A stretch of 22,940 bases of DNA from a virus, in the IMG/VR virus record IMGVR_UViG_3300031972_001609, positions 1 to 22,940 of that record; one strand, given 5' to 3'. This document shows, one piece after another, positions 2,834 through 20,572 of the stretch (its first letter is position 1; each line of letters starts with the position of its first letter). The notes beneath the pieces are model-generated. The model was not told where the DNA came from. It made no database searches and saw only the letters and a program-made list of their open reading frames with translations. The translations under genes were made by a program, and so were the position numbers.

Positions 2834-5638
2834 TTAAAATTCAACACCAGATTTTGTTATAACAAAGTCAACAACGATAAATTCAATTGCTCTTGCTGGT
2901 TTGATGTAAATTTTTGCATACATAATGTTTCTATCAACCAAGTCAGCAGTTGTTGTTGTTTCATCAAGAACCAATTTGTATTCTGTAATACCTAAGTTTG
3001 TTTTAACATTATCTAAAACTGTTTGCGCTTGGGTTTTAAATCTTCCCCAAGTTGAGTTTACATTCTGATCAAACAAAATGGTATCTGCGATTACTCCAAT
3101 TCTTCTCTTAAGGTAGATAAGCAATCTACGAACGTTAATACGATCTAAAGCAGAAGGTTTTCTTTGAAGTGTTTTTTGTCCGAATACAACAATTTCACTT
3201 ACTGCTGGAAATTTTGCAATTGGATTGATTCTTGCTTGATATAAGTCATCTCTATTTGCCTTTGTCAAGTGCTCGCTAGTATTAGCAGCTCCTGCCAAAG
3301 ATCCTCGGTTAAACCCAGCTGGTGCAAACCATGGTTGTGACTGAGCTTCAGAAAAACCCAGAGCTTGAACGGCAGCAACAGATGGTGGAACCAATCCGTG
3401 ATCATTATATCTTACCCATGGGTAATACGTTGCGGCGTATGAAGAATCAACTTTTCTACTTTTAAATGTTGATACAATTGAAGATAAAGATCCATAAGAT
3501 TCAACACCAGAATTTTCCCAAGTTGGTAAATATATCGAAGGTATATCCATTATGTATAAGAAGTCTTTTCTTTTGTTTGCTAATTCAACAATATCATCAG
3601 TCAATCCTGTGTTTGTGATTCCCGGCACTGCTAATATATCGTACTGGGTTACTTCAGGATCAGAAATTGTTGATATAGCTTTTTTGATTGAATTATAAGC
3701 ATAAGATGTTGCTTCTGATTTTCCTGACATTATTGTGTTAGAGAATGGGTTTGCATTCTTGATATCTAATCCATCAAATCCACCATGGAAGTAAGCTTTG
3801 TATTGTTTAACACCAAGATCTAAAACAGCACTAACACTGCCACTTAATTTTGATATAGAATCTGCACTAACAGAATAAGATCCTGATTCAAAATGAAAAT
3901 AAGAATCATTTTGTTGAGATTTTATTTCGTCTAAACTGAATATAAAGCTGCGTTCTAGGGTTGCATGTAAAGAGTCTGCATGTTCATTTAAGTTTATGCT
4001 ATTATTTCCTGGTAATGCTCTAACAATGTCATAATAACAAGGAGATATTGCCTGCTTAGGAGATTCACAATGATCAACACCTTGCAGATCATTTTTACTA
4101 TAAGCAGATGTGTTGGTTGTAAGTCTTAATGTTGGCCATTCTAAAGTAAACCTTGATGTACCAACCATACCACCAGAAGCAGCAATATTGTGACCACCAG
4201 GAACTGAGTTTGGATTTATTATAAATGCATTTGAAGAAATAGTACCAGTACCATTTGCGACTGATGTTATTGAAATCTTCTTAGGCTTTGCTGGCCCATA
4301 AAAACCAACAGGTAATGCTAAGGGATCATTGAGAGTTCCATTTTTAACATCATCGGCTAAAACAACTCTAACGTATTCGTTAAGAACTGGATATTCGCCT
4401 CTTATATTATACTTTTTCTGTGTTGCATCCCACTTTTGATATTGTGTTCCAATGACTTTACCAATAAAGTCTTCACGAGCAGGATCTAACGAACAATTAG
4501 CAACCATCATTTCAGCATTATCTGAGAGTCTTTTAATCTTAACAGTAAATCTAGATGGATCTATTGCATCTTGACCTAAGTAAAGATTTTCAATTGTAGG
4601 ATAAAATTCTTTATGGAAAGATTCTCCTTTGTGCAAAGAAACTAGTTTAAACAACTTTCTTTGAGTTGGTTGTCTATCAATAAACCAAGGAGATTCTGAT
4701 GCTTTTGCATCTTTCTTTCTATCTGCCCAGTTAAGACCACCGGCAGTTTGCAAAGGAAAGAGAATTGCAGCTTGTGAACCAAGAGTTGTATTTGTGCTGG
4801 TGTAATCTTTTGTTTTAAGTTCAAAAGTCTCTCCAAGAAAATACTTTTTACTTGAGCCACCAAAGTTAGCAGCAGCTCTTAATTGTTCTGCGTTTGTATT
4901 AAAATCTCCAATAGCGCCACGACTTTTAAAATCAGTCGTAACGGTTTCAACAACAGACGATGTCCCACCTTCTTCGGTATAAACACTAATATTATAAATA
5001 TTTCCAGCTCCACATTTTCTAGCAACTCCAACACCTTTATCGGCAGTATGGTTTGCAGCTTGCTGATTACTCAATCCTGATACTGTACCACTTAAGTGCA
5101 AAGCAGCTCCACTAACATAAAAAATAGCAGCCAAGGACCCAGATGCACTACTGTCATCTGCATTTCCAGTATCAACGAGCGTTTGTTCGGTAATAACCCA
5201 AAGCCCATAAGCTGTAATGTTATCATTAGCAGCAGCATTAGCATTTCCAGCTTCTCCAAGATTCCAACCAGCAGAATAAGCATCAGAGTTAACATTTCCG
5301 TCTTTCTCTCCAACTAATCTAACAAACTTAACAGGAGTTCCAACATTGCTTTCAAAATGCATTTGTGCCGCCATAAGACCATAGTCTGAAAGACTTTGAG
5401 TTCCGTCTCTCCATGCGTCAACTGATCCAACTTCTGTTGAAGATCCTTGCTTTCTTGCTTTACCAAAAAGTGTGGTCATTGTGTCTTTGTCTCTGACAAC
5501 AACAGGCTCTAAACCTGGTCCTTTTGGTGCTGTTCCAATAATCATAATCCCATCGGCTTCAACCTCGGGTGTGATGAACGATTCATCTATCTCATTCAAT
5601 TGCACTCCGGGCGATAAAAAACTAAACTTTCTAGGCAT
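2834..5638 (-). CDS. 18: Tail sheath protein (gp18-like), enlarged
   Basis: A 934-residue contractile sheath subunit. The N-terminus (PRKFSFLSPGVQLNEIDES, then GIMIIGTAPKGP near residues 30-41) and the last ~160 residues (from GFNRGSLAGA near 775, INPIAKFP, RINVRRLLIYLKRRI, FIVVDFVITKSG) match the conserved sheath core that forms the inner layer and donates arms to neighbouring subunits. T4 gp18 has 659 residues, so about 275 extra residues lie in the middle, probably as surface-exposed domains. AAGGAG precedes the ATG at 5638, and a CTATTTA element sits 31 bases upstream, so sheath and tubes may have their own promoter. In the virion the sheath surrounds the tube and contracts to drive DNA delivery. 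Confidence 0.93.
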   Translation of the reverse strand: MPRKFSFLSPGVQLNEIDESFITPEVEADGIMIIGTAPKGPGLEPVVVRDKDTMTTLFGKARKQGSSTEVGSVDAWRDGTQSLSDYGLMAAQMHFESNVGTPVKFVRLVGEKDGNVNSDAYSAGWNLGEAGNANAAANDNITAYGLWVITEQTLVDTGNADDSSASGSLAAIFYVSGAALHLSGTVSGLSNQQAANHTADKGVGVARKCGAGNIYNISVYTEEGGTSSVVETVTTDFKSRGAIGDFNTNAEQLRAAANFGGSSKKYFLGETFELKTKDYTSTNTTLGSQAAILFPLQTAGGLNWADRKKDAKASESPWFIDRQPTQRKLFKLVSLHKGESFHKEFYPTIENLYLGQDAIDPSRFTVKIKRLSDNAEMMVANCSLDPAREDFIGKVIGTQYQKWDATQKKYNIRGEYPVLNEYVRVVLADDVKNGTLNDPLALPVGFYGPAKPKKISITSVANGTGTISSNAFIINPNSVPGGHNIAASGGMVGTSRFTLEWPTLRLTTNTSAYSKNDLQGVDHCESPKQAISPCYYDIVRALPGNNSINLNEHADSLHATLERSFIFSLDEIKSQQNDSYFHFESGSYSVSADSISKLSGSVSAVLDLGVKQYKAYFHGGFDGLDIKNANPFSNTIMSGKSEATSYAYNSIKKAISTISDPEVTQYDILAVPGITNTGLTDDIVELANKRKDFLYIMDIPSIYLPTWENSGVESYGSLSSIVSTFKSRKVDSSYAATYYPWVRYNDHGLVPPSVAAVQALGFSEAQSQPWFAPAGFNRGSLAGAANTSEHLTKANRDDLYQARINPIAKFPAVSEIVVFGQKTLQRKPSALDRINVRRLLIYLKRRIGVIADTILFDQNVNSTWGRFKTQAQTVLDNVKTNLGITEYKLVLDETTTTADLVDRNIMYAKIYIKPARAIEFIVVDFVITKSGVEF

Positions 5639-8295: not shown

Positions 8296-8320
8296 TTTTA
8301 GACAAAAGAAAAGCCCCAAG
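8289..8320. repeat. Direct repeat copy A (terminator-promoter cassette)
   Basis: This 32-base stretch matches 9349-9380 at 29 of 32 positions without gaps. Both contain TAAATAGTTTT and AAAGAAAAGCCCCAAG (plus strand), i.e. one arm of the terminator, its T-tract and the CTATTTA element. The copies flank the 223-aa and 60-aa genes. Confidence 0.8.
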
Positions 8321-8339
8321 CAATTGGAGAGCAAGGGGC
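8302..8339 (-). terminator. Intrinsic terminator after the 60-aa gene
   Basis: Minus strand GCCCC-TT-GC / GC-TT-GGGGC with a nine-base loop, followed by TTTTCTTTTG. The stem (8313-8321 with 8331-8339) has two symmetrical T-T mismatches, the same design as the terminator at 9361-9396. Confidence 0.8.
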
Positions 8340-8388
8340 AAACGGAGGACTAACACATATGAATTAGTTACTATACAATATAATTAGT

Positions 8389-8558: not shown

Positions 8559-9230
8559 TTAGAATCCCCAACTAGTATCATAACCACGAAGAATAATCAA
8601 AAGCTTTCCAGCTGTGTATTGTGCACCATCGGCTAGATCAGCACCAGTCAAGTAAAGACCTTTTGTATCAACATCAGTTAGTGCAGGAATAGCAGTAACT
8701 TCTGGGCTGGCGTTATCCAAATCTTCATCCATTATTGGAATAATGTGTCTGTCGCCTTCAACAATATTTCCACCACCTGCTAGTAAAAGAAGATCAGGAG
8801 AAGTGATTGCTGTTCCTAATTTGTTACCGGCAGCATAAGTTTCAAATACAACATCGATGTCTAAAGTTCCACCAGCAGGTAATTCAGTACAAATAATTTC
8901 AGCTTCAAAAAGTCTCCCGTGAATACTATTACTCCATTGGAGTAAATGTGCACCTTCAATCGCAGCAGCTAAAGCAGCAGCTTCGTCTGTAGCATCAGTT
9001 GTTGCACCAATAACATCTTGATCAGTATCAGCACTGTGTATGATAGAACTTCCCTTTCCTTGCAAATCAACTAAAATTTGAGTCTCAATGACACCACCAA
9101 ATTTATACATTTTATGTGACACAATGGCGTCTTTAATACCAGCACCTGCTTGTTTAGAACTATCAAGCTCAGCAGCACCTCTTTTCATCATTGCTTGGAG
9201 CCTTTGCGCTCCTAATCTTCTATTTCCCAT
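8559..9230 (-). CDS. Probable virion structural protein, 223 aa (head-associated)
   Basis: The first 20 residues (MGNRRLGAQRLQAMMKRGAA) form a basic helix; the rest looks beta-rich, with CTELPAGGTLDIDVVF (about 113-128), a Gly-rich LLLLAGGGN, and a C-terminal YLTGADLADGAQYTAGKLLIILRGYD. The TAGKLLI...GYD ending and CTE-x-PAGG...DID pattern recall small beta-rich structural proteins common in marine phages, though I cannot name a family. The gene lies directly after the major capsid gene, where T4-like phages carry a vertex protein or accessory head genes, so a decoration or head-fibre role is possible. AGGAG precedes the ATG at 9230 by eight bases. Unusually, about 110 bases of leader with a kissing-loop RNA fold separate promoter motif and start. 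Confidence 0.75.
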   Translation of the reverse strand: MGNRRLGAQRLQAMMKRGAAELDSSKQAGAGIKDAIVSHKMYKFGGVIETQILVDLQGKGSSIIHSADTDQDVIGATTDATDEAAALAAAIEGAHLLQWSNSIHGRLFEAEIICTELPAGGTLDIDVVFETYAAGNKLGTAITSPDLLLLAGGGNIVEGDRHIIPIMDEDLDNASPEVTAIPALTDVDTKGLYLTGADLADGAQYTAGKLLIILRGYDTSWGF

Positions 9231-9264
9231 AATATTTTCTCCTTTTTATAATTATGGACCTGTT

Positions 9265-9336
9265 TTCTGGTCAGTTTCTACCAGCCCCATTCCGGTAGAG
9301 ACAGTGAGCAGGGGCCTCGCTCAAAGGAGACCAGAA
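9265..9336 (-). ncRNA. Candidate structured leader RNA: three-way junction with kissing loops
   Basis: On the minus strand an 8-bp closing stem P1 (TTCTGGTC 9336-9329 with GACCAGAA 9272-9265) encloses two hairpins. P2 is TGAGC/GCTCA (9323-9319 with 9309-9305) with loop GAGGCCCCT. P3 is TCTACC/GGTAGA (9299-9294 with 9282-9277), extendable by G-T and G-C to eight pairs, with GGGG in its loop. Loop 2 GCCCC can pair with GGGGC of hairpin 3. The layout resembles purine-riboswitch topology, but the junction bases do not match that class. It starts about 12 bases after a CTATTTA element and ends 34 bases before the gene, so it is probably the 5' leader of the 223-aa gene. Pairing is read directly; function is unknown. 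Confidence 0.55.
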
Positions 9337-9348
9337 TTCAAGTCGTAG

Positions 9349-9355
9349 TAAATAG
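9349..9355 (-). promoter_or_regulatory. CTATTTA promoter-like element upstream of the leader RNA and 223-aa gene
   Basis: Minus strand AAAACTATTTACTACG lies between the capsid-gene terminator and the structured leader, 118 bases before the ATG at 9230. This is the only copy with a long leader. Confidence 0.5.
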
Positions 9356-9380
9356 TTTTCAAAAAAAGAAAAGCCCCAAG
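9349..9380. repeat. Direct repeat copy B (terminator-promoter cassette)
   Basis: Partner of 8289-8320, identical at 29 of 32 positions. Together the copies bracket the leader RNA, the 223-aa gene and the Lys/Ala-rich gene. Confidence 0.8.
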
Positions 9381-9396
9381 GAAAATCCAAGGGGCT
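9361..9396 (-). terminator. Intrinsic terminator after the major capsid gene
   Basis: Minus strand AGCCCC-TT-GGA / TCC-TT-GGGGCT with a three-base loop (9372-9396), followed by TTTTCTTTTTTT. It lies about 30 bases beyond the capsid stop codon. Confidence 0.85.
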
Positions 9397-9427: not shown

Positions 9428-11284
9428 TTAGGAAGAACCTTCTTCACCTAAAAGACCACGAACAAGTACAATACCGTACATATCAGGACGAACCATCTTC
9501 TTACCGTATCGAGTCATTACGCCTTTACGTGGCACAAAGTCCTCAACACCGAAGATTGTAGGTGTTGTTTGTAGTGGAACGTAAGGTGCATAAACGTATC
9601 CTGATTCTAAGAAAGAATTACCTTTACGTCCAACAAGAATAGCGTTTCTTGGGAAGTAAGGGTCAACGATTACATCAAACTTACGAGAAAGAGAACCTGT
9701 CTTAACAGCTCCGATTTCACCTCTATCAGCATCAGCTGTAACGTTAGCACGGAACCCAGAAGTAAATTCTAAAATATTAGCAACTTCAGGACCACAAACG
9801 ACATAGTTAGCTCCACCACGAAGTGTTTTTAAGTGTATTTGAGCAGAAACATCATTAATGGTTTCAATAAGAGTTTCGTACCATTCTGAAACAGTTCCTG
9901 TAAAATCAGGAGCAGCAGAAGAAGCACCAAGTTCTTGACCAGTTATTTTGTTTACAAAGAGACCTGGGGAACGAGACCAGTAGTACTTAGCAGCAGTTGC
10001 GCCATTTACAAGATCAGCAAGAAGCTCACGGTCGATTTCCAAAGCAATTTGCTCAGAAAGAATAGAAGTCAATTCAACCTCAGCATCAAGATTATGATAA
10101 GCATTCAAATCTTGACCCAACTCAGGTGTCCACTTAGCCTTAAGCTTTTTGGTCTGTGTTGTGATTGCGATTGAATCTACCTTGATGTCAATTTCTGGCA
10201 TCTGTTCTGCACCTTCAAATGGGAAGTTAAATCCGTCAATTGCTCCAAGCTTGTTAGTTGTTGAAGTAATAGCATCTTCCAAAGGTCCTAAGATTTTAGC
10301 TGCATCAATGACAACAGCTGTTGTACCAGTTGCACCTTCAGCATATGTACCACCAGTATCAATGATAAAGAATCTAACAGCAGCGGCTTGTGATGTCAAT
10401 CCAGAATAGATTGCCGATCCACCAGAAGTTCCAGCTTTAACGTGATGAGTTAAACGTCTTACTTGACTACAAGAAGCTAGCGCCATAGATACATCAGTAA
10501 CATTGTCTAAAGCTGTTTTGAGGTCATTACCGTCTGCTGAGAATTGTAACTCAAATGCAGACAAGTTATCAAAGTTTGCTTGAGCTGCAAATTCATCTTT
10601 AGCAATATCAACAACGATGACATGGTCATTAGACTCTACATTCATTAAATCTGGGTCGAATCTCAATAGTCTAGCTTGGGCTTCTGTTAAGTTGCCATCT
10701 AATTTGATAACATTCTTAACAACAATAGCAGCCGCTCCAGCAGCAATTTCAGTAGCAACAGAACCAGTAGGTGAGGAATAGGCATAACCAACTTGTTGTC
10801 TTAGGCCGCCAATGCTTTCAGCATTGGTAGCTTCCACAAGATTAACACCACCTGTGATTTGCGATGCAACTTGATTTGTGCCATAAATTGATTTTTCAGG
10901 TGTATTACCCATGCGAGAAGTCTGGTCGGCTTGACCAGCAACGTTTGGTGAATAAACGAAATCAAGGAAGAAGATAAGACCACTTGGAAGAGACATCGGT
11001 TGAACCGAAACCAATTCATTAGCAATCAAACCTGCAAATACGCGACGAACGATAGGAAACGCCACAGAAGCGAAACCTTCAACATCACCAGCACTCATAG
11101 AAGAACTCTCGCGTAAAAGTTCTTTGGCTTGGTTTTCGAGAAGACGTGCCATGTTTTGACGTGAATTTTGTGTATCTAAACCTTCCAAAAGACCAGTAGC
11201 TTCCCACTTACGTAGTAAAGCTTGACCTTCTTTTTTCATATCACGATTAACAATGCCTTCTGATAATTTTTGTATTATAGACAT
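9428..11284 (-). CDS. 23: Major capsid protein precursor (gp23-like)
   Basis: A 618-residue HK97-fold capsid protein of the T4 gp23 family. Family features are NMARLLENQAKELLRE near residues 44-59, FPIVRRVFAGLIANELVSVQPM (76-97), KKLKAKWTPELGQDLNAYHN (379-398) with DAEVEL and LEIDREL after it, and the C-terminal SGYVYAPYVPL and FVPRKGVMTRYGKK. T4 gp23 is 521 residues; the ~100 extra residues mostly lie between about 110 and 370, suggesting an enlarged insertion domain on the capsid surface. The gp21-type protease cleaves after (L/I)-x-E; LRE at 57-59 is a good processing site, close to T4's Glu65. AAGGAG precedes the ATG at 11284, 27 bases after the scaffold stop. A strong terminator follows. 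Confidence 0.95.
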   Translation of the reverse strand: MSIIQKLSEGIVNRDMKKEGQALLRKWEATGLLEGLDTQNSRQNMARLLENQAKELLRESSSMSAGDVEGFASVAFPIVRRVFAGLIANELVSVQPMSLPSGLIFFLDFVYSPNVAGQADQTSRMGNTPEKSIYGTNQVASQITGGVNLVEATNAESIGGLRQQVGYAYSSPTGSVATEIAAGAAAIVVKNVIKLDGNLTEAQARLLRFDPDLMNVESNDHVIVVDIAKDEFAAQANFDNLSAFELQFSADGNDLKTALDNVTDVSMALASCSQVRRLTHHVKAGTSGGSAIYSGLTSQAAAVRFFIIDTGGTYAEGATGTTAVVIDAAKILGPLEDAITSTTNKLGAIDGFNFPFEGAEQMPEIDIKVDSIAITTQTKKLKAKWTPELGQDLNAYHNLDAEVELTSILSEQIALEIDRELLADLVNGATAAKYYWSRSPGLFVNKITGQELGASSAAPDFTGTVSEWYETLIETINDVSAQIHLKTLRGGANYVVCGPEVANILEFTSGFRANVTADADRGEIGAVKTGSLSRKFDVIVDPYFPRNAILVGRKGNSFLESGYVYAPYVPLQTTPTIFGVEDFVPRKGVMTRYGKKMVRPDMYGIVLVRGLLGEEGSS

Positions 11285-13145: not shown

Positions 13146-14849
13146 TTAGAAAATCATCCAGTTGTTTGTACCTTCTAAGATCAACTTAATAGAAGCGTTT
13201 GGTGATTCAAGTTGGATTGAAGGGTAACCATCAAAAGTGTACCCTGACGGAGCAGCACCTGAAATTGTCAAAACAACAGCTTCTGAAACTAAAGGTCCAG
13301 CTTTAATGTTAATTTCATCACCAGCAGAAAAACCAGAAGATGCAATAAGAGCTGTAGCAGAAGCAGTTATATTGAACAAGTCAACCATACTGTCATCAGA
13401 TATAGTCATATTAGCACCAGTGCTTACATTAACAGTTCTTTTGATTTTTGCAGCAGAGTCGGCAGTTACACCAGTTTGGAAGTAAGTCTTTAATGAAGTA
13501 ACATTAATTTGCTTCATAGTGTCATCAGCATCGTTAAATAGCACAGCATCACCATCAACAACAGTAGCTGTTTCTACAGTAGAACCACCATCAAGAAGAA
13601 GGAATTCCGCCGAAGTTACGTTAGCATTACCAACAGCACCAGCAAGAAGTGGAACGTGACCAGTTAAGTCAGGAAGTGTGATTGTCTTATCTGATCCTTG
13701 AGCGTCAGCAGCAGTAAGAATAACTTCATTACCATCTGGGGTTGATCCTTCAAAAGCAACTGAAGAAGTTACAACAAACCCTTGTTGGATTTCTACAGAA
13801 GAGCCTTGAACTATTAAATCACCAGAGATAACAACGTTTCCGTTACCAACTGTTAATTGAGCAGTGTCGTTAACCGACATTTTAATTTCATTTGCTGATC
13901 CAAAATCAATATACTCTTGATTAGCAGCAGTACCAATCTTACCAATACTTGAATTAATAATAGAAGTAATACCAACTTGAGCAGCAGCAACTTTTATACC
14001 ACCAGATCCTAATGCAAGACCAGGGTTTGTGTCTAATTTGATTTGAACTGCTCGATCAGGACCGTTTAAGTCAAGACCACCAGACGAATGAACGTTCACT
14101 TGGAGTACTCCACTGTTTTCACCAAGTCCATCTCCTGCTAAATCCAAAGTATTCACAGAAAGTCCATCACCATCAAGTGTAAGACCAGCGTCTGTTTTTA
14201 CTTTTGCTGTTAAGCCACCAGGAGCTAGTTGAAGACCTGGGTTTGTACCTAATTTGATACCAGCTTGTCCACCAGGACCACTTACATCGAGACCCCCTGA
14301 AGCGTTTAGGTTTAATTTTATCGCGTTAGAAACAACAGTCACACCATCACCAGCAACGTTAGCATCTAACATTGAACCTTCAATTGTACCAGCACCAATT
14401 GTTAAAGCACCACCAGAAGCAACAGTAGCATCACCAGAAATTTTAGCAAAACCGTGTTCTATAATTTTTACAATCTGTGTTTGAACCATTGTAGAACCAG
14501 AGTTATGAACAAATCCGTGACTGTCAAGTAACAAACCAGTTCCGACTGTTGTGCCTCCGTCAACAATGTTTAGCTCAGCAGAAGTCGAGGTGACAGCAGC
14601 TAATTTAGTAAAGTCTGCTTGAACCAAACCACCAACACCATCAAGTGCTAAACCAGCAAGAGTTGTCATATCAGCAGCAACAAGTCCAGAACTAGCAAGA
14701 ATGTTTAGTTCGGCAGGTGTAGCAGTAACAGCTGTTCCACCGATAGATAGAGAAGAACCAGAAAGAGCAGCAGCTTCTGCTTTGATCTGTCCTTCTTGGA
14801 CGAGAGATCCACTTAAACGAGCGGCCCCCAATTGAAATTTATAAGCCAT
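13146..14849 (-). CDS. Fibre/appendage-like repeat protein, 567 aa
   Basis: A low-complexity, beta-rich, Gly/Ser/Thr/Ala-rich protein. The N-terminus has TPAELNIL (44-51) and TSAELNIVDGGTTVGT (89-104), a repeat type frequent in T4-like phage fibres; a third relative, TSAEFLLLDGGSTVET, occurs later. Two longer repeats share SGGLD(V/L)-x-GP...IKL-x-TNPGL-x-L-x-x-GG (about 184-212 and 256-284). The C-terminal ~90 residues, ending IQLESPNASIKLILEGTNNW, resemble the C-terminus of the 339-aa neighbour. AGGAG-like GGAGG precedes the ATG at 14849. A fibre, whisker or head appendage is likely. The protein lacks any recognisable enzyme or receptor-binding motif, so host specificity cannot be judged. 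Confidence 0.8.
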   Translation of the reverse strand: MAYKFQLGAARLSGSLVQEGQIKAEAAALSGSSLSIGGTAVTATPAELNILASSGLVAADMTTLAGLALDGVGGLVQADFTKLAAVTSTSAELNIVDGGTTVGTGLLLDSHGFVHNSGSTMVQTQIVKIIEHGFAKISGDATVASGGALTIGAGTIEGSMLDANVAGDGVTVVSNAIKLNLNASGGLDVSGPGGQAGIKLGTNPGLQLAPGGLTAKVKTDAGLTLDGDGLSVNTLDLAGDGLGENSGVLQVNVHSSGGLDLNGPDRAVQIKLDTNPGLALGSGGIKVAAAQVGITSIINSSIGKIGTAANQEYIDFGSANEIKMSVNDTAQLTVGNGNVVISGDLIVQGSSVEIQQGFVVTSSVAFEGSTPDGNEVILTAADAQGSDKTITLPDLTGHVPLLAGAVGNANVTSAEFLLLDGGSTVETATVVDGDAVLFNDADDTMKQINVTSLKTYFQTGVTADSAAKIKRTVNVSTGANMTISDDSMVDLFNITASATALIASSGFSAGDEINIKAGPLVSEAVVLTISGAAPSGYTFDGYPSIQLESPNASIKLILEGTNNWMIF

Positions 14850-15961: not shown

Positions 15962-18900
15962 CTAACTATATGCTACTGTTATTCTTTCCATATACCCTAT
16001 CCAGTCTTTATGAGCTGATAGTCTTAAAACTACTGCTTTAGAACCTCCACCAGTTCCTAATTGACTGCCTCCATTAAACGTGACACTAAAAGAGGTGCCA
16101 CCAGTAGATATAGGTGTTGGAGACGACCCCCCAACTAATGCACCAGCACCATCAGAGTCTTTGTTGTTACTGATGTAAGATTTTCCAGCATCAAGCCAAG
16201 CAGTTGATTCTGGTATCTTAACTTCTAGATGAAAGTTTCCATTATTACCAAGAGCAGTAGATTTTTCAACCATAGATCCTGATCCATGCAAAGTTACTGT
16301 TACACTTGATCTGTCATCAGAAGTATTGTTTCTAAAGTATCTATAGTAAGTTCTTGTAGAATTTGTTAGTGTTGAATAATTTGGATTACTATCTGGTGCT
16401 TGTAGTGATCCTCCATCTTTAACATTTCGTGTATCTCCCTTGTTGCCTATTTGGAACGGTGATATCAAATGACCGTTTGATGTAACCATTCCATCATCAT
16501 GAGTTCCACCTGCATTCATAGTGGTTAAAGAATTCCACTTACTAACCGAACCTGTTGCTAAGGCTTGAGTTCCATAATTACCCGATACTATTCTATAAGA
16601 CTCCATTCCAAAATATTCTAGTGTGTTTTCGTTTGTACTACCAACAGATCCTGAGTATATCATGAAATAATTTTTACTAAGAGATGTTGATGTTCTGTCT
16701 GTTTTAAATGGGTGTATTACTTTTGAATTAACTGTTACACCATAAGATGTAAACTGGCTCAAACCACCACTGATTGAAACACTAGGGGATGCATCGAAAA
16801 GAACAGTACCAGTAACTTGAAAATTAGTTAAATGACAATTAGTTGAGTTATTTAAAGTACCAAAAGCAAGTGTGCTAGCAGCAGAAGAAGTTGTGTTTAT
16901 ACCAGAACCAGAAATTCTAATATTCGATATCGAACATCTTGTGGTAGTTGGAAAACTAATTGCACTCCCTGTTGGGTAAACATTTCTGTAAAAATTAGAC
17001 GCTATATAGGTATAACTCCCTGTTGGTCTTGATGCAAAATATCCAATTCCTGATTGATAATACTTTGTTGTGTGTCCAAAGTTGCTCAATGCCGCAGATG
17101 ATATAGCAGTATCATTAACTGATCCAGATGGATCAACAAGCCATTCTACATAATTTGTTGTAGTATTCGAATCAGCTATTCTATGTATAACTCTGGCATA
17201 GTTCCATCCCTTGTTTTGATCAGCTGTTCCTACTTGATAAGAACCGGTTCTGTAAGTTTTAGTATAATCCGGAATACTGCCGGCTGTTCCAAAAAATACA
17301 GGCGATACTGTAAACCCTGATGAGTTTCCATTCAAACTATTAGTTATGCCCGATAAAGTTACTAAGGAAGTTGTATGAACTTCCGCTCCATTTACCTCCA
17401 GTACTAAAGAACCAGTGAGTCCGTTTTTAAAAGAGTTGGCTGTGTAGTTGGACCCACTTGCACTAACATCTTCATTTAAGGTACCAACTATTGTGGGAAA
17501 AGAAGAAAAGATTCCTCTACGATTTCCTGAAACTCCGTAGATGTCATTACTATTCAAGTTAATCATAGATCCTTTTCCAGATCCAGTAACAGAGCTATAA
17601 AAATTTACAACATTAGAAGAACCAAAGGATAGTTTTGCTGTTTTGTTTGAATTGTTGCAATCAATATTGTCTAGCGCGTGAGAAGCGACTGGTGTGTTTG
17701 TAGAGGCACTTAAGAAAAATTCTAATTTTGATATATACCCAGCCCATGATTCATCAGCTAGAATCTTGATAACTGCTTTGTTTCCATTATTTAATGAAGC
17801 AGTCCCTATGGTAAGAAAATGGATGTTATTTCCATTGTCAACGTCATTTGAGGCTCCTTGTACTAATGCTCCATTTCCATTTTGTGTTTGGCCGTAAACA
17901 AAATTTTGAGAAATATCCATCCAACCGGTTGTTCCGGGCACTTTTATAAAGAAGTGTGCATTCGAGGCAGCCAAAGTAGAGTTGTTAAAAGTAGTTGAAT
18001 TCTTGGTTGTTACTATTTTAAAGTTACTAGTATTAACACCACTAGAATTTGTCAATACTCTATAAAAAGTTCTAGTTCCTGTTAAAGTATTATAATTGGG
18101 TTGTCCTGATTCGACATTTAATAAGGTGCTAAAGTTACCACTATTCGGTACATCATCATCAACAGGACTATATAATCTTTGATTGTAGAACAAAAGTCCA
18201 TCTTGGTGTCCATCAACATTTGAACCAGTCATATGTGTTTGGGAATTCCAAGCAGCAGCATCAACAGTTACAGAGTTCTGCGTATCATAAGAGGCTGATG
18301 TTATTCTGTAGCTTTCGTCATGAAAGCTTTCAACCAAGTTGGAACTAGCTAAAATTCTGTTATCAATTAAGAACCCATTAGTCGTGGTAGCAGAACCAGC
18401 ATTAGAAAGATTGGCTTTAAGTGGGTGAGTTGCGCTGATATTTGCTGTTAAAGACCCACTTAAAAGGCTAGTAACGTTAACTGCTAGACTTCCTGTGGTG
18501 CTTATAACTTTTGTGTTGTTGTCTCCTCCACCTAAAGCAGGTACAGATTGTGCTGTTGGTGTTGAACTGTTTGTTACTGTGAATGTTATGGTGTTGGTAG
18601 TAGAAGGGTAAACATTCTTATACATATTATTTAAAGCTACTTTGTAATTAGCGTTTGAGCCTGTATTGTATTGTATACCGGAAAGATACTTTGAACCTCT
18701 TAAAACTATGTTTTCAATTCTAGGATTAGTGGCTGTTAAAGCCGCAGCCGCTCCTTCAGGGTCTGATATCCATTCTATATAATTGGTAGTATAGTCAGTT
18801 GATCCAACTGTGTGTATGACTCTTGCATAGTTCCACCCTTTTCTGTGCCCTGTTGAGGAAATTTTATATTTAGCTGTTCTGTGTTTAAATATATACCATT

Positions 18901-20572
18901 CAGAGTTATTTCCATCATACGAAGAAGCAGAAACAGATACATTGACAAACCCAGAGTTACTAGTTAAAGATGAAGCAGATCCTGTTGCTGGGTTGCCTGC
19001 TCCTGCAAAAGCAGCAAGGTTAATTGTATGAACAGTGGCCCCGTTTAATTCTAACTTTAAAGTTCCTGTCTCAGCATTCCCAAATGCACCAGAAGAGTAG
19101 GCCATGTAATTGTTTGTAACACTTGGTGCTGTGTTAAAGTTCAGTGACCCTGTAATGTCATGAGAATCATAAACCCCTAATCTTAAATTGTTGGCACTCG
19201 AACTATATTGATAAGTTGCATTTCTAGCAACAGCTGAAAAACCCGCAGAAGTTGCAGAAGAAGAATATCCTGAAATTGCATTAGATCCATCAAAAGATAA
19301 TTTGGCTGATACTCCTGTTTTAGAATCAGCATTTATAAGACTTAAATTAGGTGCAGGAGATGGGGCTAGTATTTTCAAAACTTCATTAAACTTATCAACA
19401 GCGGTTCCAATCGGCGTTGATGATACAAAATCTGCAAACAAGCCATCAGTGTAAGAACCATCTTCTGCATTGCCTATTGTTGAGCTACCACCTGCGCCAC
19501 CAGGACCAGAAGAAGATGTTAGTACTATGTTATTATTGGAATCTAATGCGAGGTAACTGCTAGTTGTTGCGGTTCCTGCTACGAGACCTGTTAGTTTCAT
19601 AGTAGAGCCTGTTATAGAGCCACTAGTTTCAATTGAACCCGAGAGGAATGTTTTATTACCAGTTGGCGAAATAACCATAACACCATTGGCCAATGTTTTA
19701 AAATCTGTGTATATGTTTGAAGAAACTCCAAGTTGATACTTGGAATATGATAATCTCATTTGAACATCATCTGTTTTTAGAACTTCAAGTGTTTTTTGTG
19801 GATCTGCTCTACCTATTCCAACTCTGTTATTCGACGAATCGACTTTTAGAGAATTAGTATCAACTGTGACGTCACCAGCCACTGTTAGTGTTGATAAGGT
19901 ACCAACTGAGGTTATGTTAGTTTGAGCAGCTGTTGTTATTGCTCCTGCAATGTTGGTAGCAGAAAGTGTTGCACTAGAGGGGTTGTAAGTAAATGTTCCT
20001 GTGTCGTCCAATAAGGCATTTGATTCATCATTAAAGACTACGGGGAAATTAGTATTAGCCGAGCTGTCTGTAACTGTTACTTTTGATGAGACTCCTGTGA
20101 CGTCTCCAATTATACTCCCAGCTGTTACTGTCCCGAAAACTCCAATACCACCTGATACTGCTGTTGAACCAGTGATAAAAGTGACTGTAAGTGGGGACGC
20201 AACAGTTGCAGCAGTAACACCTGTTAAGTTTGAACCATCTCCAATAAATGAAGAAGCAGTTATATTTTGGTTTACTCGAACTGAACCAGTAAAAGAATGA
20301 ACATCATCATTACTATCTCCAAACTTAGAAGACCCAGTAACTGATAGTTTAATAATGTTTTTTGTTGTTGTATCAATATTGTATTCATTAGCATAGATCG
20401 GCCCAGAGATATACAACGCCCCAGTTAACGCTACTATGCTTGTAGCAGGATCAAATGTTAATTTTGGCGATCCAGTTAACTCTGTGGCATTTTTTCTTAC
20501 CTGTATTGAATTTACTGATCCACCGATACTTTGATTGCTGCCACTTATGTATGCCCAACCGAATTCACCCAT
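15962..20572 (-). CDS. Giant fibre/appendage protein with internal duplication, 1536 aa
   Basis: The N-terminal ~360 residues have fibre-type sequences: IGDGSNLTGVTA (110-121), NNRVGIGRADPQKTLEVL (248-265) and many SGS(I/V) turns. Next come DGLFADFVSSTPIGTAVDKF and EVLKILAPSPAPNL (376-410), a segment I have seen in structural proteins of marine T4-like phages. From about 422 on, two ~550-residue copies of one domain follow (422-955 and 977-1536). Both contain KGWNYARVIH, a TNY(I/V)EW, an N-x-x-Y-(K/R)NVYP, an ESYRI, a PNY(N/S)TLT, and a W(A/I)GY near their end. The ATG at 20572 has AGAGAGG upstream. Likely a long virion fibre or neck appendage; no enzymatic motif is visible. Confidence 0.85.
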   Translation of the reverse strand: MGEFGWAYISGSNQSIGGSVNSIQVRKNATELTGSPKLTFDPATSIVALTGALYISGPIYANEYNIDTTTKNIIKLSVTGSSKFGDSNDDVHSFTGSVRVNQNITASSFIGDGSNLTGVTAATVASPLTVTFITGSTAVSGGIGVFGTVTAGSIIGDVTGVSSKVTVTDSSANTNFPVVFNDESNALLDDTGTFTYNPSSATLSATNIAGAITTAAQTNITSVGTLSTLTVAGDVTVDTNSLKVDSSNNRVGIGRADPQKTLEVLKTDDVQMRLSYSKYQLGVSSNIYTDFKTLANGVMVISPTGNKTFLSGSIETSGSITGSTMKLTGLVAGTATTSSYLALDSNNNIVLTSSSGPGGAGGSSTIGNAEDGSYTDGLFADFVSSTPIGTAVDKFNEVLKILAPSPAPNLSLINADSKTGVSAKLSFDGSNAISGYSSSATSAGFSAVARNATYQYSSSANNLRLGVYDSHDITGSLNFNTAPSVTNNYMAYSSGAFGNAETGTLKLELNGATVHTINLAAFAGAGNPATGSASSLTSNSGFVNVSVSASSYDGNNSEWYIFKHRTAKYKISSTGHRKGWNYARVIHTVGSTDYTTNYIEWISDPEGAAAALTATNPRIENIVLRGSKYLSGIQYNTGSNANYKVALNNMYKNVYPSTTNTITFTVTNSSTPTAQSVPALGGGDNNTKVISTTGSLAVNVTSLLSGSLTANISATHPLKANLSNAGSATTTNGFLIDNRILASSNLVESFHDESYRITSASYDTQNSVTVDAAAWNSQTHMTGSNVDGHQDGLLFYNQRLYSPVDDDVPNSGNFSTLLNVESGQPNYNTLTGTRTFYRVLTNSSGVNTSNFKIVTTKNSTTFNNSTLAASNAHFFIKVPGTTGWMDISQNFVYGQTQNGNGALVQGASNDVDNGNNIHFLTIGTASLNNGNKAVIKILADESWAGYISKLEFFLSASTNTPVASHALDNIDCNNSNKTAKLSFGSSNVVNFYSSVTGSGKGSMINLNSNDIYGVSGNRRGIFSSFPTIVGTLNEDVSASGSNYTANSFKNGLTGSLVLEVNGAEVHTTSLVTLSGITNSLNGNSSGFTVSPVFFGTAGSIPDYTKTYRTGSYQVGTADQNKGWNYARVIHRIADSNTTTNYVEWLVDPSGSVNDTAISSAALSNFGHTTKYYQSGIGYFASRPTGSYTYIASNFYRNVYPTGSAISFPTTTRCSISNIRISGSGINTTSSAASTLAFGTLNNSTNCHLTNFQVTGTVLFDASPSVSISGGLSQFTSYGVTVNSKVIHPFKTDRTSTSLSKNYFMIYSGSVGSTNENTLEYFGMESYRIVSGNYGTQALATGSVSKWNSLTTMNAGGTHDDGMVTSNGHLISPFQIGNKGDTRNVKDGGSLQAPDSNPNYSTLTNSTRTYYRYFRNNTSDDRSSVTVTLHGSGSMVEKSTALGNNGNFHLEVKIPESTAWLDAGKSYISNNKDSDGAGALVGGSSPTPISTGGTSFSVTFNGGSQLGTGGGSKAVVLRLSAHKDWIGYMERITVAYS
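15965..17644 (-). repeat. Coding repeat 2 (C-terminal copy) in the 1536-aa protein
   Basis: Codes for residues about 977-1536, from TAKLSF to the end, and matches the copy at 17708-19309 motif by motif. The offset grows from about 543 to 581 residues along the copy, so several insertions separate them. Confidence 0.75.
17708..19309 (-). repeat. Coding repeat 1 in the 1536-aa protein
   Basis: Codes for residues about 422-955, from SAKLSF to the FFLSAS stretch. Shared ordered motifs with repeat 2 include TG(T/S)L-x-LE-(L/V)NGA-x-VHT and KGWNYARVIH. Confidence 0.75.

What the first reader, a model, noticed from the sequence alone, without database searches (positions are those of the whole stretch)
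9265..9336. Kissing-loop, three-way-junction RNA in the leader of a capsid-adjacent gene
Read directly: an 8-bp closing stem, two hairpins (5 bp and 6-8 bp) and complementary loops GCCCC and GGGGC. Such a fold is much more organised than expected by chance in an AT-rich leader and sits right after a promoter-like element, between the major capsid and a virion-type gene. The topology is like that of purine riboswitches, but the junction sequence is not. It might sense a metabolite, bind a phage protein, or stabilise the mRNA of an abundant protein. This may be an undescribed RNA class in this phage group.
Basis: partly seen in the sequence, partly recalled or inferred. Interest (0 to 1): 0.75.

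Follow-up and report, generated by a model that had tools for sequence, protein, structure and literature searches.

The report
Phage capsid-gene leader RNA with kissing loops
Between the main shell gene and the next gene of an uncultured T4-like virus there is a real, conserved folded RNA (two hairpins whose loops pair with each other) at the start of the next gene's message; over 130 related virus sequences keep the fold while changing the letters, and it matches no catalogued RNA family, so it is probably an undescribed RNA that controls production of a virion protein.

Summary
The element is an RNA on the MINUS strand (all window genes are there). It is somewhat larger than reported (9344-9257) and lies at the 5' end of the late mRNA of the gene after gp23, the major capsid protein (MCP). 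A covariance model built only from a divergent subtype finds the window copy on the minus strand (E 2.9e-10). About 137 IMG/VR relatives keep P0, P1, P2, P3 and the L2-L3 kissing pairs. Seventeen of 31 pairs show changes on both sides. Kissing 5-mers occur as GCCCC/GGGGC, GCCAC/GUGGC, GCGGC/GCCGC and GCCGC/GCGGC, and stayed complementary in searches that never asked for it. No Rfam match, no match in cultured-phage records; one copy per phage contig, in the gp23 region. Junction J1/2 carries an invariant CUCCU that can pair with the gene's own Shine-Dalgarno (SD) sequence. That pairing would cross P0/P1, which suggests a two-state translation leader. Identical leaders precede different protein bodies that share a basic N-terminus. 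Structure, strand and conservation are shown. Function (5'-end protection plus control of ribosome access) is inferred. A metabolite-riboswitch reading is not supported beyond topology.

The parts
9428..11284 (-). gp23-type major capsid protein gene, upstream neighbour
   Evidence: PHROG 138 major head protein, E 5.5e-68
9361..9396 (-). Terminator-like hairpin AGCCCCUUGG..CCUUGGGGCU with U-run, after gp23
   Evidence: Read directly; stem folds at -15.5 kcal/mol, z -2.9
9349..9356 (-). Late-promoter-like motif ACTATTTA
   Evidence: ACTA[AT]TTA occurs 9 times on the minus strand, mostly just before genes, and not on the plus strand; present in 132 of 137 homologous leaders
9339..9344 (-). P0 5' strand GACUUG, at the probable transcript start; pairs with 9262-9257
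   Evidence: 98.6% of cells paired in 72 subtype-B sequences, changes mostly to G-U
9329..9336 (-). P1 5' strand UUCUGGUC; pairs with 9272-9265
   Evidence: Whole-helix compensatory replacement among subtype A; changes on both sides in subtype B
9325..9329 (-). Invariant CUCCU (last P1 base plus J1/2), complementary to the SD at 9243-9239
   Evidence: Present in every element, including loci found without asking for it; best complement of the SD in 127 of 127 leaders
9305..9323 (-). P2 hairpin UGAGC/GCUCA with 9-nt loop L2 GAGGCCCCU
   Evidence: P2 99.3% of cells paired, two pairs with changes on both sides
9311..9315 (-). Kissing 5-mer GCCCC in L2; pairs with GGGGC at 9288-9284
   Evidence: Four complementary kissing pairs in the family; blind test
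9274..9302 (-). P3 hairpin (UCUACC/GGUAGA, extended by GU/AC beyond a mismatch) with 11-nt loop L3 GGAAUGGGGCU
   Evidence: 10 of 11 P3 pairs in subtype B have changes on both sides
9284..9288 (-). Kissing 5-mer GGGGC in L3
   Evidence: As above
9265..9272 (-). P1 3' strand GACCAGAA
   Evidence: As P1
9257..9262 (-). P0 3' strand CAGGUC
   Evidence: As P0
9257..9344 (-). Whole structured element
   Evidence: Covariance-model match, 43.9 bits, E 2.9e-10, by a model that holds no sequence of this subtype
9239..9243 (-). Shine-Dalgarno sequence AGGAG
   Evidence: Read directly
8559..9230 (-). 223-aa gene served by the leader; N-terminus MGNRRLGAQRL; probable virion (decoration) protein
   Evidence: N-terminal signature follows every element; beta-rich model, mean pLDDT 80; role inferred from position

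Best explanation
An undescribed structured RNA forms the first ~90 nt of a late phage mRNA, between gp23 and a probable virion-protein gene. SHOWN by comparison: helices P0-P3, the L2-L3 kissing helix, the strand, an invariant CUCCU at the first junction, and attachment to genes starting MG-x-RR-x-[GS]-xx-RL. INFERRED: it controls how much of the next protein is made, in two ways. (i) P0 starts at or next to the predicted transcription start, so the folded state buries the 5' end and should shield the message from 5'-end-dependent decay. (ii) CUCCU can pair with the gene's own AGGAG, but only if P0/P1 open; so folded leader means ribosome site free, opened leader means ribosome site masked. 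The kissing loops would help lock the folded (ON) state during transcription, before the SD sequence is made. Whether a protein, a metabolite or folding kinetics alone tips the balance is unknown. My likelihoods: real conserved RNA 0.97; leader controls expression of the downstream gene 0.8; SD switch as described 0.45; 5'-end protection contributes 0.5.
For: Covariation: 17 of 31 pairs with both-side changes, 207 cells against 63 in shuffles, slid controls 32-46% paired against 93.3%; RNAalifold finds P0, P2, P3 unaided; model of subtype B detects the window's subtype A. Kissing complementarity kept in sets where it was not asked for. Strand: 169 G-U against 33 A-C cells. P0 starts 4-5 nt after the promoter motif in most leaders. 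Phages without the element have a 5' hairpin before this gene (73% with MFE < -5) but rarely before other late genes (8%); 5' structure protects bacterial mRNA from RppH and 5'-tethered RNase E (PMC3997798). CUCCU invariant and the best SD complement in 127/127 leaders, median -9.4 kcal/mol; SD-free and SD-masked states nearly balanced in subtype B, medians +1.0 and +1.4 kcal/mol.
Against: No transcript, probing or expression data. CUCCU-SD pairing shows no covariation at flanking positions (T/A 111, T/G 6, C/A 4, T/T 3, C/G 1), and an invariant junction could equally be a tertiary or ligand site. In the window's subtype A the SD-free state wins by about 5 kcal/mol, so little switching is expected there without a partner. 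The predicted +1 rests on a motif and T4-type spacing. In nested folding only 51% of element leaders have a pair within the first 6 nt of the first 45 nt. Kissing energies are not in the calculation.
Confidence: 0.5

Rival explanations
1. Pure 5'-end stabiliser: the fold only protects the late mRNA from pyrophosphate removal and 5'-end-dependent decay; CUCCU belongs to the tertiary fold and is not an anti-SD.
For: Other phages of the group place unrelated simple hairpins at the same 5' position of this gene; 5' hairpins stabilise bacterial mRNA (PMC3997798); no SD covariation.
Against: A simple hairpin would do; the sequence conservation of junction and loops exceeds what a stem needs, and CUCCU is exactly anti-SD in all leaders.
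Confidence: 0.25
2. Protein-binding operator: a phage protein, perhaps the shared basic N-terminus MGNRRLGRKRL of the downstream proteins, binds the fold and represses or activates translation.
For: Among the gp23 loci all 17 genes with the MG-x-RR signature have the element and none of 10 with MGTKR does; the N-terminus is arginine-rich and shared by otherwise different proteins.
Against: In L120 a related gene copy has the N-terminus without the element; leader and body vary independently; the N-terminal helix may simply bind the capsid.
Confidence: 0.12
3. Metabolite riboswitch with purine-riboswitch-like architecture.
For: Same topology: P1, two hairpins, L2-L3 kissing; strongly conserved junction J1/2.
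Against: No Rfam riboswitch match even at E<=10; junctions J2/3 and J3/1 differ between subtypes A and B, unlike a conserved ligand pocket; the regulated gene is not metabolic; P2 and P3 have unequal lengths in subtype B.
Confidence: 0.08
4. DNA-level exchange cassette: the leader is kept because it gives homology for swapping virion-protein genes, like the mobile regulatory cassettes reported for T4-type phages (Arbiol et al. 2010, known here only as a citation).
For: Leader similarity does not follow the protein body (Spearman 0.085) but weakly follows the MCP (0.33); window and L114 have an identical leader with bodies 43% alike; L124/L263 have bodies 83% alike under different leader subtypes.
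Against: DNA homology alone would not produce compensatory changes in five helices; selection acts on the RNA fold. Exchange may be a by-product.
Confidence: 0.05

Closest known systems
Purine / 2'-deoxyguanosine riboswitch aptamers
   Same: Three-way junction with P1, P2, P3 and loop-loop (L2-L3) pairing, in an mRNA leader
   Different: Different junction and loop sequences, 5-bp Watson-Crick kissing helix, unequal P2/P3 lengths in subtype B, outer P0, virion gene instead of purine genes, no Rfam match
5'-terminal stem-loop stabilisers of bacterial mRNAs (ompA, papA type)
   Same: Helix at or next to the mRNA 5' end, high-output gene expected
   Different: Far more elaborate and sequence-conserved; 5' end not mapped; stabilisation untested
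Translational (Shine-Dalgarno-sequestering) leader switches
   Same: Leader holds a segment complementary to its own SD, exclusive with another helix
   Different: No ligand or regulator known; alternative pairing inferred from complementarity and energies only
T4-type phage promoter/stem-loop mobile regulatory cassettes (Arbiol et al. 2010)
   Same: Promoter plus RNA stem-loop region next to exchangeable genes
   Different: Here a late promoter, a covarying kissing-loop fold and one site per contig; the cassette paper itself was not held, so the comparison rests on my recollection and its title

Membership tests
Purine riboswitch | Match to the Rfam purine covariance model | tested here: not met
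   No purine match at E<=10 for the window or the L044 element
Purine riboswitch | Three-way junction with L2-L3 loop-loop pairing | tested here: met
   Topology and kissing covariation
Purine riboswitch | Ligand binding at a conserved junction pocket | not testable with these tools
   Only J1/2 is conserved across subtypes; binding needs experiment
Any described RNA family (Rfam release 15) | Gathering-score match | tested here: not met
   No match in window or six divergent loci
5'-terminal mRNA stabiliser | Helix at the mRNA 5' end | tested here: inconclusive
   P0 starts 4-5 nt after the promoter motif in most leaders; transcript start not mapped
5'-terminal mRNA stabiliser | Lengthens mRNA half-life | not testable with these tools
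   Needs experiment
SD-sequestering translational switch | Conserved anti-SD exclusive with another conserved helix | tested here: met
   CUCCU invariant, best SD complement in 127/127 leaders, pairing crosses P0/P1
SD-sequestering translational switch | Covariation between anti-SD and SD | tested here: inconclusive
   Core invariant on both sides; flanks do not covary
T4 mobile regulatory cassette | Dispersed copies at several intergenic sites | tested here: not met
   One copy per contig in nine element-bearing contigs of 62-195 kb

The most novel reading that the evidence does not exclude
A new class of phage RNA switch: a kissing-loop three-way junction at the 5' end of a late mRNA that toggles between a closed form (5' end buried, ribosome site free) and an open form (ribosome site masked by the first junction), responding to a capsid protein or another infection-state signal, and serving as a common expression platform in front of exchangeable virion surface proteins.
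Probability: 0.3. Interest if true: 0.85.

Novelty: new variant of a known kind. Interest (0 to 1): 0.7.

Why it matters
Here is a complex, covariation-proven RNA fold in the leader of a phage virion gene. It is widespread in a T4-like group that I met only in metagenome contigs, is absent from Rfam release 15, and comes with natural sequence variation that makes mutational tests straightforward. If the mechanism holds, it is a concrete case of virion-protein dosage control by a leader RNA. It also shows a conserved RNA plus N-terminal module in front of exchangeable protein bodies.

Tried and rejected
Plus-strand RNA: rejected (no gene there, no model match at the locus, G-U/A-C asymmetry). 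Known Rfam family: none. Presence in cultured phages: blastn with both subtypes found nothing relevant. Presence in bacterial genomes: 16 pattern hits in genome contigs, none confirmed by the covariance model. Other copies within a genome: none. Covariation of J1/2 flanks with SD flanks: absent. Autoregulation through the protein body: made unlikely by body exchange under identical leaders. Structure search of the 223-aa protein gave no informative solved match. Circularity guard: my descriptor required kissing complementarity and the patterns fixed both loops, so the kissing claim rests on the MCP-route loci and on scans that left L3 free. The T4 mobile-cassette paper and the survey of 224 candidate RNAs were not held.

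Full report
WHAT IS THERE. The window is a 22,940-base virus record with T4-like structural genes (gp21-type protease, gp23 MCP, tail sheath and others), which all lie on the minus strand. On that strand the order is gp23 stop (9428), a terminator-like hairpin with a U-run (9396-9361), the motif ACTATTTA (9356-9349), the structured element (9344-9257), AGGAG (9243-9239) and the ATG of a 223-aa gene (9230). ACTA[AT]TTA occurs nine times on the minus strand, mostly just before genes, and not on the plus strand, which fits a late promoter. The minus-strand leader folds 3.3 standard deviations below shuffles, modest evidence by itself.

COMPARATIVE PROOF. A search with gp23 returned 80 loci chosen with no regard to the leader; one more locus came from the 223-aa protein. 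Of the loci with at least 200 nt downstream of gp23, 17 carry the element, and L003 has it in a shorter tail. They range from identical to strongly divergent. Pattern scans added more, about 137 in all. Two subtypes exist: A (window; kissing GCCCC/GGGGC, L3 of 11-13 nt) and B (kissing GCCAC/GUGGC, GCGGC/GCCGC or GCCGC/GCGGC; both loops 9 nt). RNAalifold on the sequence-only alignment of 72 subtype-B sequences recovers P0, P2 and P3 unaided. Counting the full structure gives 93.3% of cells paired, 17 of 31 pairs with changes on both sides, 207 such cells against 63 in shuffles, and slid controls at 32-46% paired. A covariance model from subtype B alone finds the window copy at 43.9 bits, E 2.9e-10; with filters off it stands far above every other place in the window. 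Subtype A shows whole-helix replacement of P1: UUCUGGUC/GACCAGAA, GCGCGGUC/GGUCGCGC, GCCCGGUC/GGUCGGGU.

KISSING LOOPS, TESTED BLIND. My descriptor imposed loop complementarity, so I relied on sets where it was not imposed. In loci found with a pattern that fixed L2 only, 91 of 93 model matches show an L3 complementary to L2, whether the variable L2 base is A or C. The two flagged exceptions have their L3 cut by the alignment window; the sequence reads GGAATATGGGGCT. In scans that left L2 partly free and L3 wholly free, the eight model-confirmed hits printed all keep complementarity, including L348 with the swapped pair GCCGC/GCGGC and L328 with GCGGC/GCCGC. The distinct elements of the gp23 route do so too.

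STRAND. Counting pairs as read on the gene strand gives 169 G-U cells against 33 A-C cells; on the opposite strand these would exchange roles. With gene direction, promoter motif and terminator this assigns the RNA to the minus strand.

WHERE IT OCCURS. One copy per contig in nine element-bearing contigs searched whole, four of them 185-195 kb, in the gp23 region. Two exceptions are informative: in L120 and L179 the element lies about 0.8 kb beyond gp23. In L120 the space holds a second gene copy with a similar N-terminus and a short plain leader, so the element goes with the downstream gene, not with the gp23 message (L179 was not inspected). There is no match in cultured-phage records, in Rfam or in bacterial genomes.

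WHAT FOLLOWS IT. Every element is followed by AGGAG and, with a few misread starts, by a gene beginning MG-x-RR-[LIMVF]-[GSA]-xx-RL or a close variant. The bodies fall into several groups (one large, about fifteen small). Leader similarity tracks gp23 weakly (Spearman 0.33) and the protein body hardly at all (0.085): the window and L114 have identical leaders but bodies 43% alike, and L124/L263 have bodies 83% alike under different subtypes. The body is thus exchanged relative to a constant leader and N-terminus. The window protein is predicted as an N-terminal helix plus a beta-rich domain (mean pLDDT 80) with no informative solved relative; 'decoration protein' is an inference from position.

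HOW IT MOST LIKELY WORKS. Two anatomical facts stand out. First, P0 begins about 4-5 nt after the promoter motif in most leaders, so the mRNA 5' end is probably in or next to a helix. Phages of this group without the element put a simple hairpin there, and they do so for this gene (73% with MFE below -5) but rarely for other late genes (8%). 5' structure is known to protect bacterial mRNA against RppH and 5'-tethered RNase E (PMC3997798). Second, the start of junction J1/2 carries CUCCU in every element, including sets in which it was not asked for, and this is the best complement of the gene's SD in 127 of 127 leaders. Pairing CUCCU with the SD crosses P0/P1, so the two exclude each other in a nested fold. 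Computed energies are nearly balanced in subtype B and favour the SD-free form by about 5 kcal/mol in subtype A. I infer a leader that buries the 5' end and keeps the SD free when folded, and masks the SD when P0/P1 open. The weak point is that CUCCU-SD pairing shows no covariation and may be incidental to a tertiary role of the junction.

VERDICT. The RNA is real, conserved, on the minus strand and not in Rfam. It is a new family of a known kind, the structured cis-regulatory leader; the switch mechanism is a testable inference. The resemblance to purine riboswitches is architectural only.

Noticed in passing
L120 about 4348-5200 (and probably L179): A second, related virion-type gene copy (NRRLGRKRL N-terminus, GTG start) lies between gp23 and the element-bearing copy and has a short plain leader without the fold: a natural comparison of two copies in one phage.
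   Followed up: partly
L021, L035, L047, L054, L063 and similar gp23 loci: Genes starting MGTKRVG[WL]AR after gp23 have a different leader: a 5' hairpin such as AGGAGAAAUCCUUU, whose 3' arm could also pair with the SD, hinting at a parallel, simpler design.
   Followed up: no
window 8296-8388 (-): Another terminator-like hairpin followed by a late-promoter motif before the 415-aa gene at 8267-7020, repeating the terminator-promoter arrangement.
   Followed up: no
subtype-B leaders, e.g. L044 2140-2155: A conserved palindrome GUUAUUGCAAUAAC between P0 and the SD, overlapping the P0 3' strand (GGUUAACGUUAACC in L072); absent from subtype A. It could be a further switching hairpin or a protein site.
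   Followed up: partly
window 15962-20572 and 13146-14849 (-): Very long repetitive virion-type proteins (1536 and 567 aa); the 1536-aa protein has no PHROG match.
   Followed up: no
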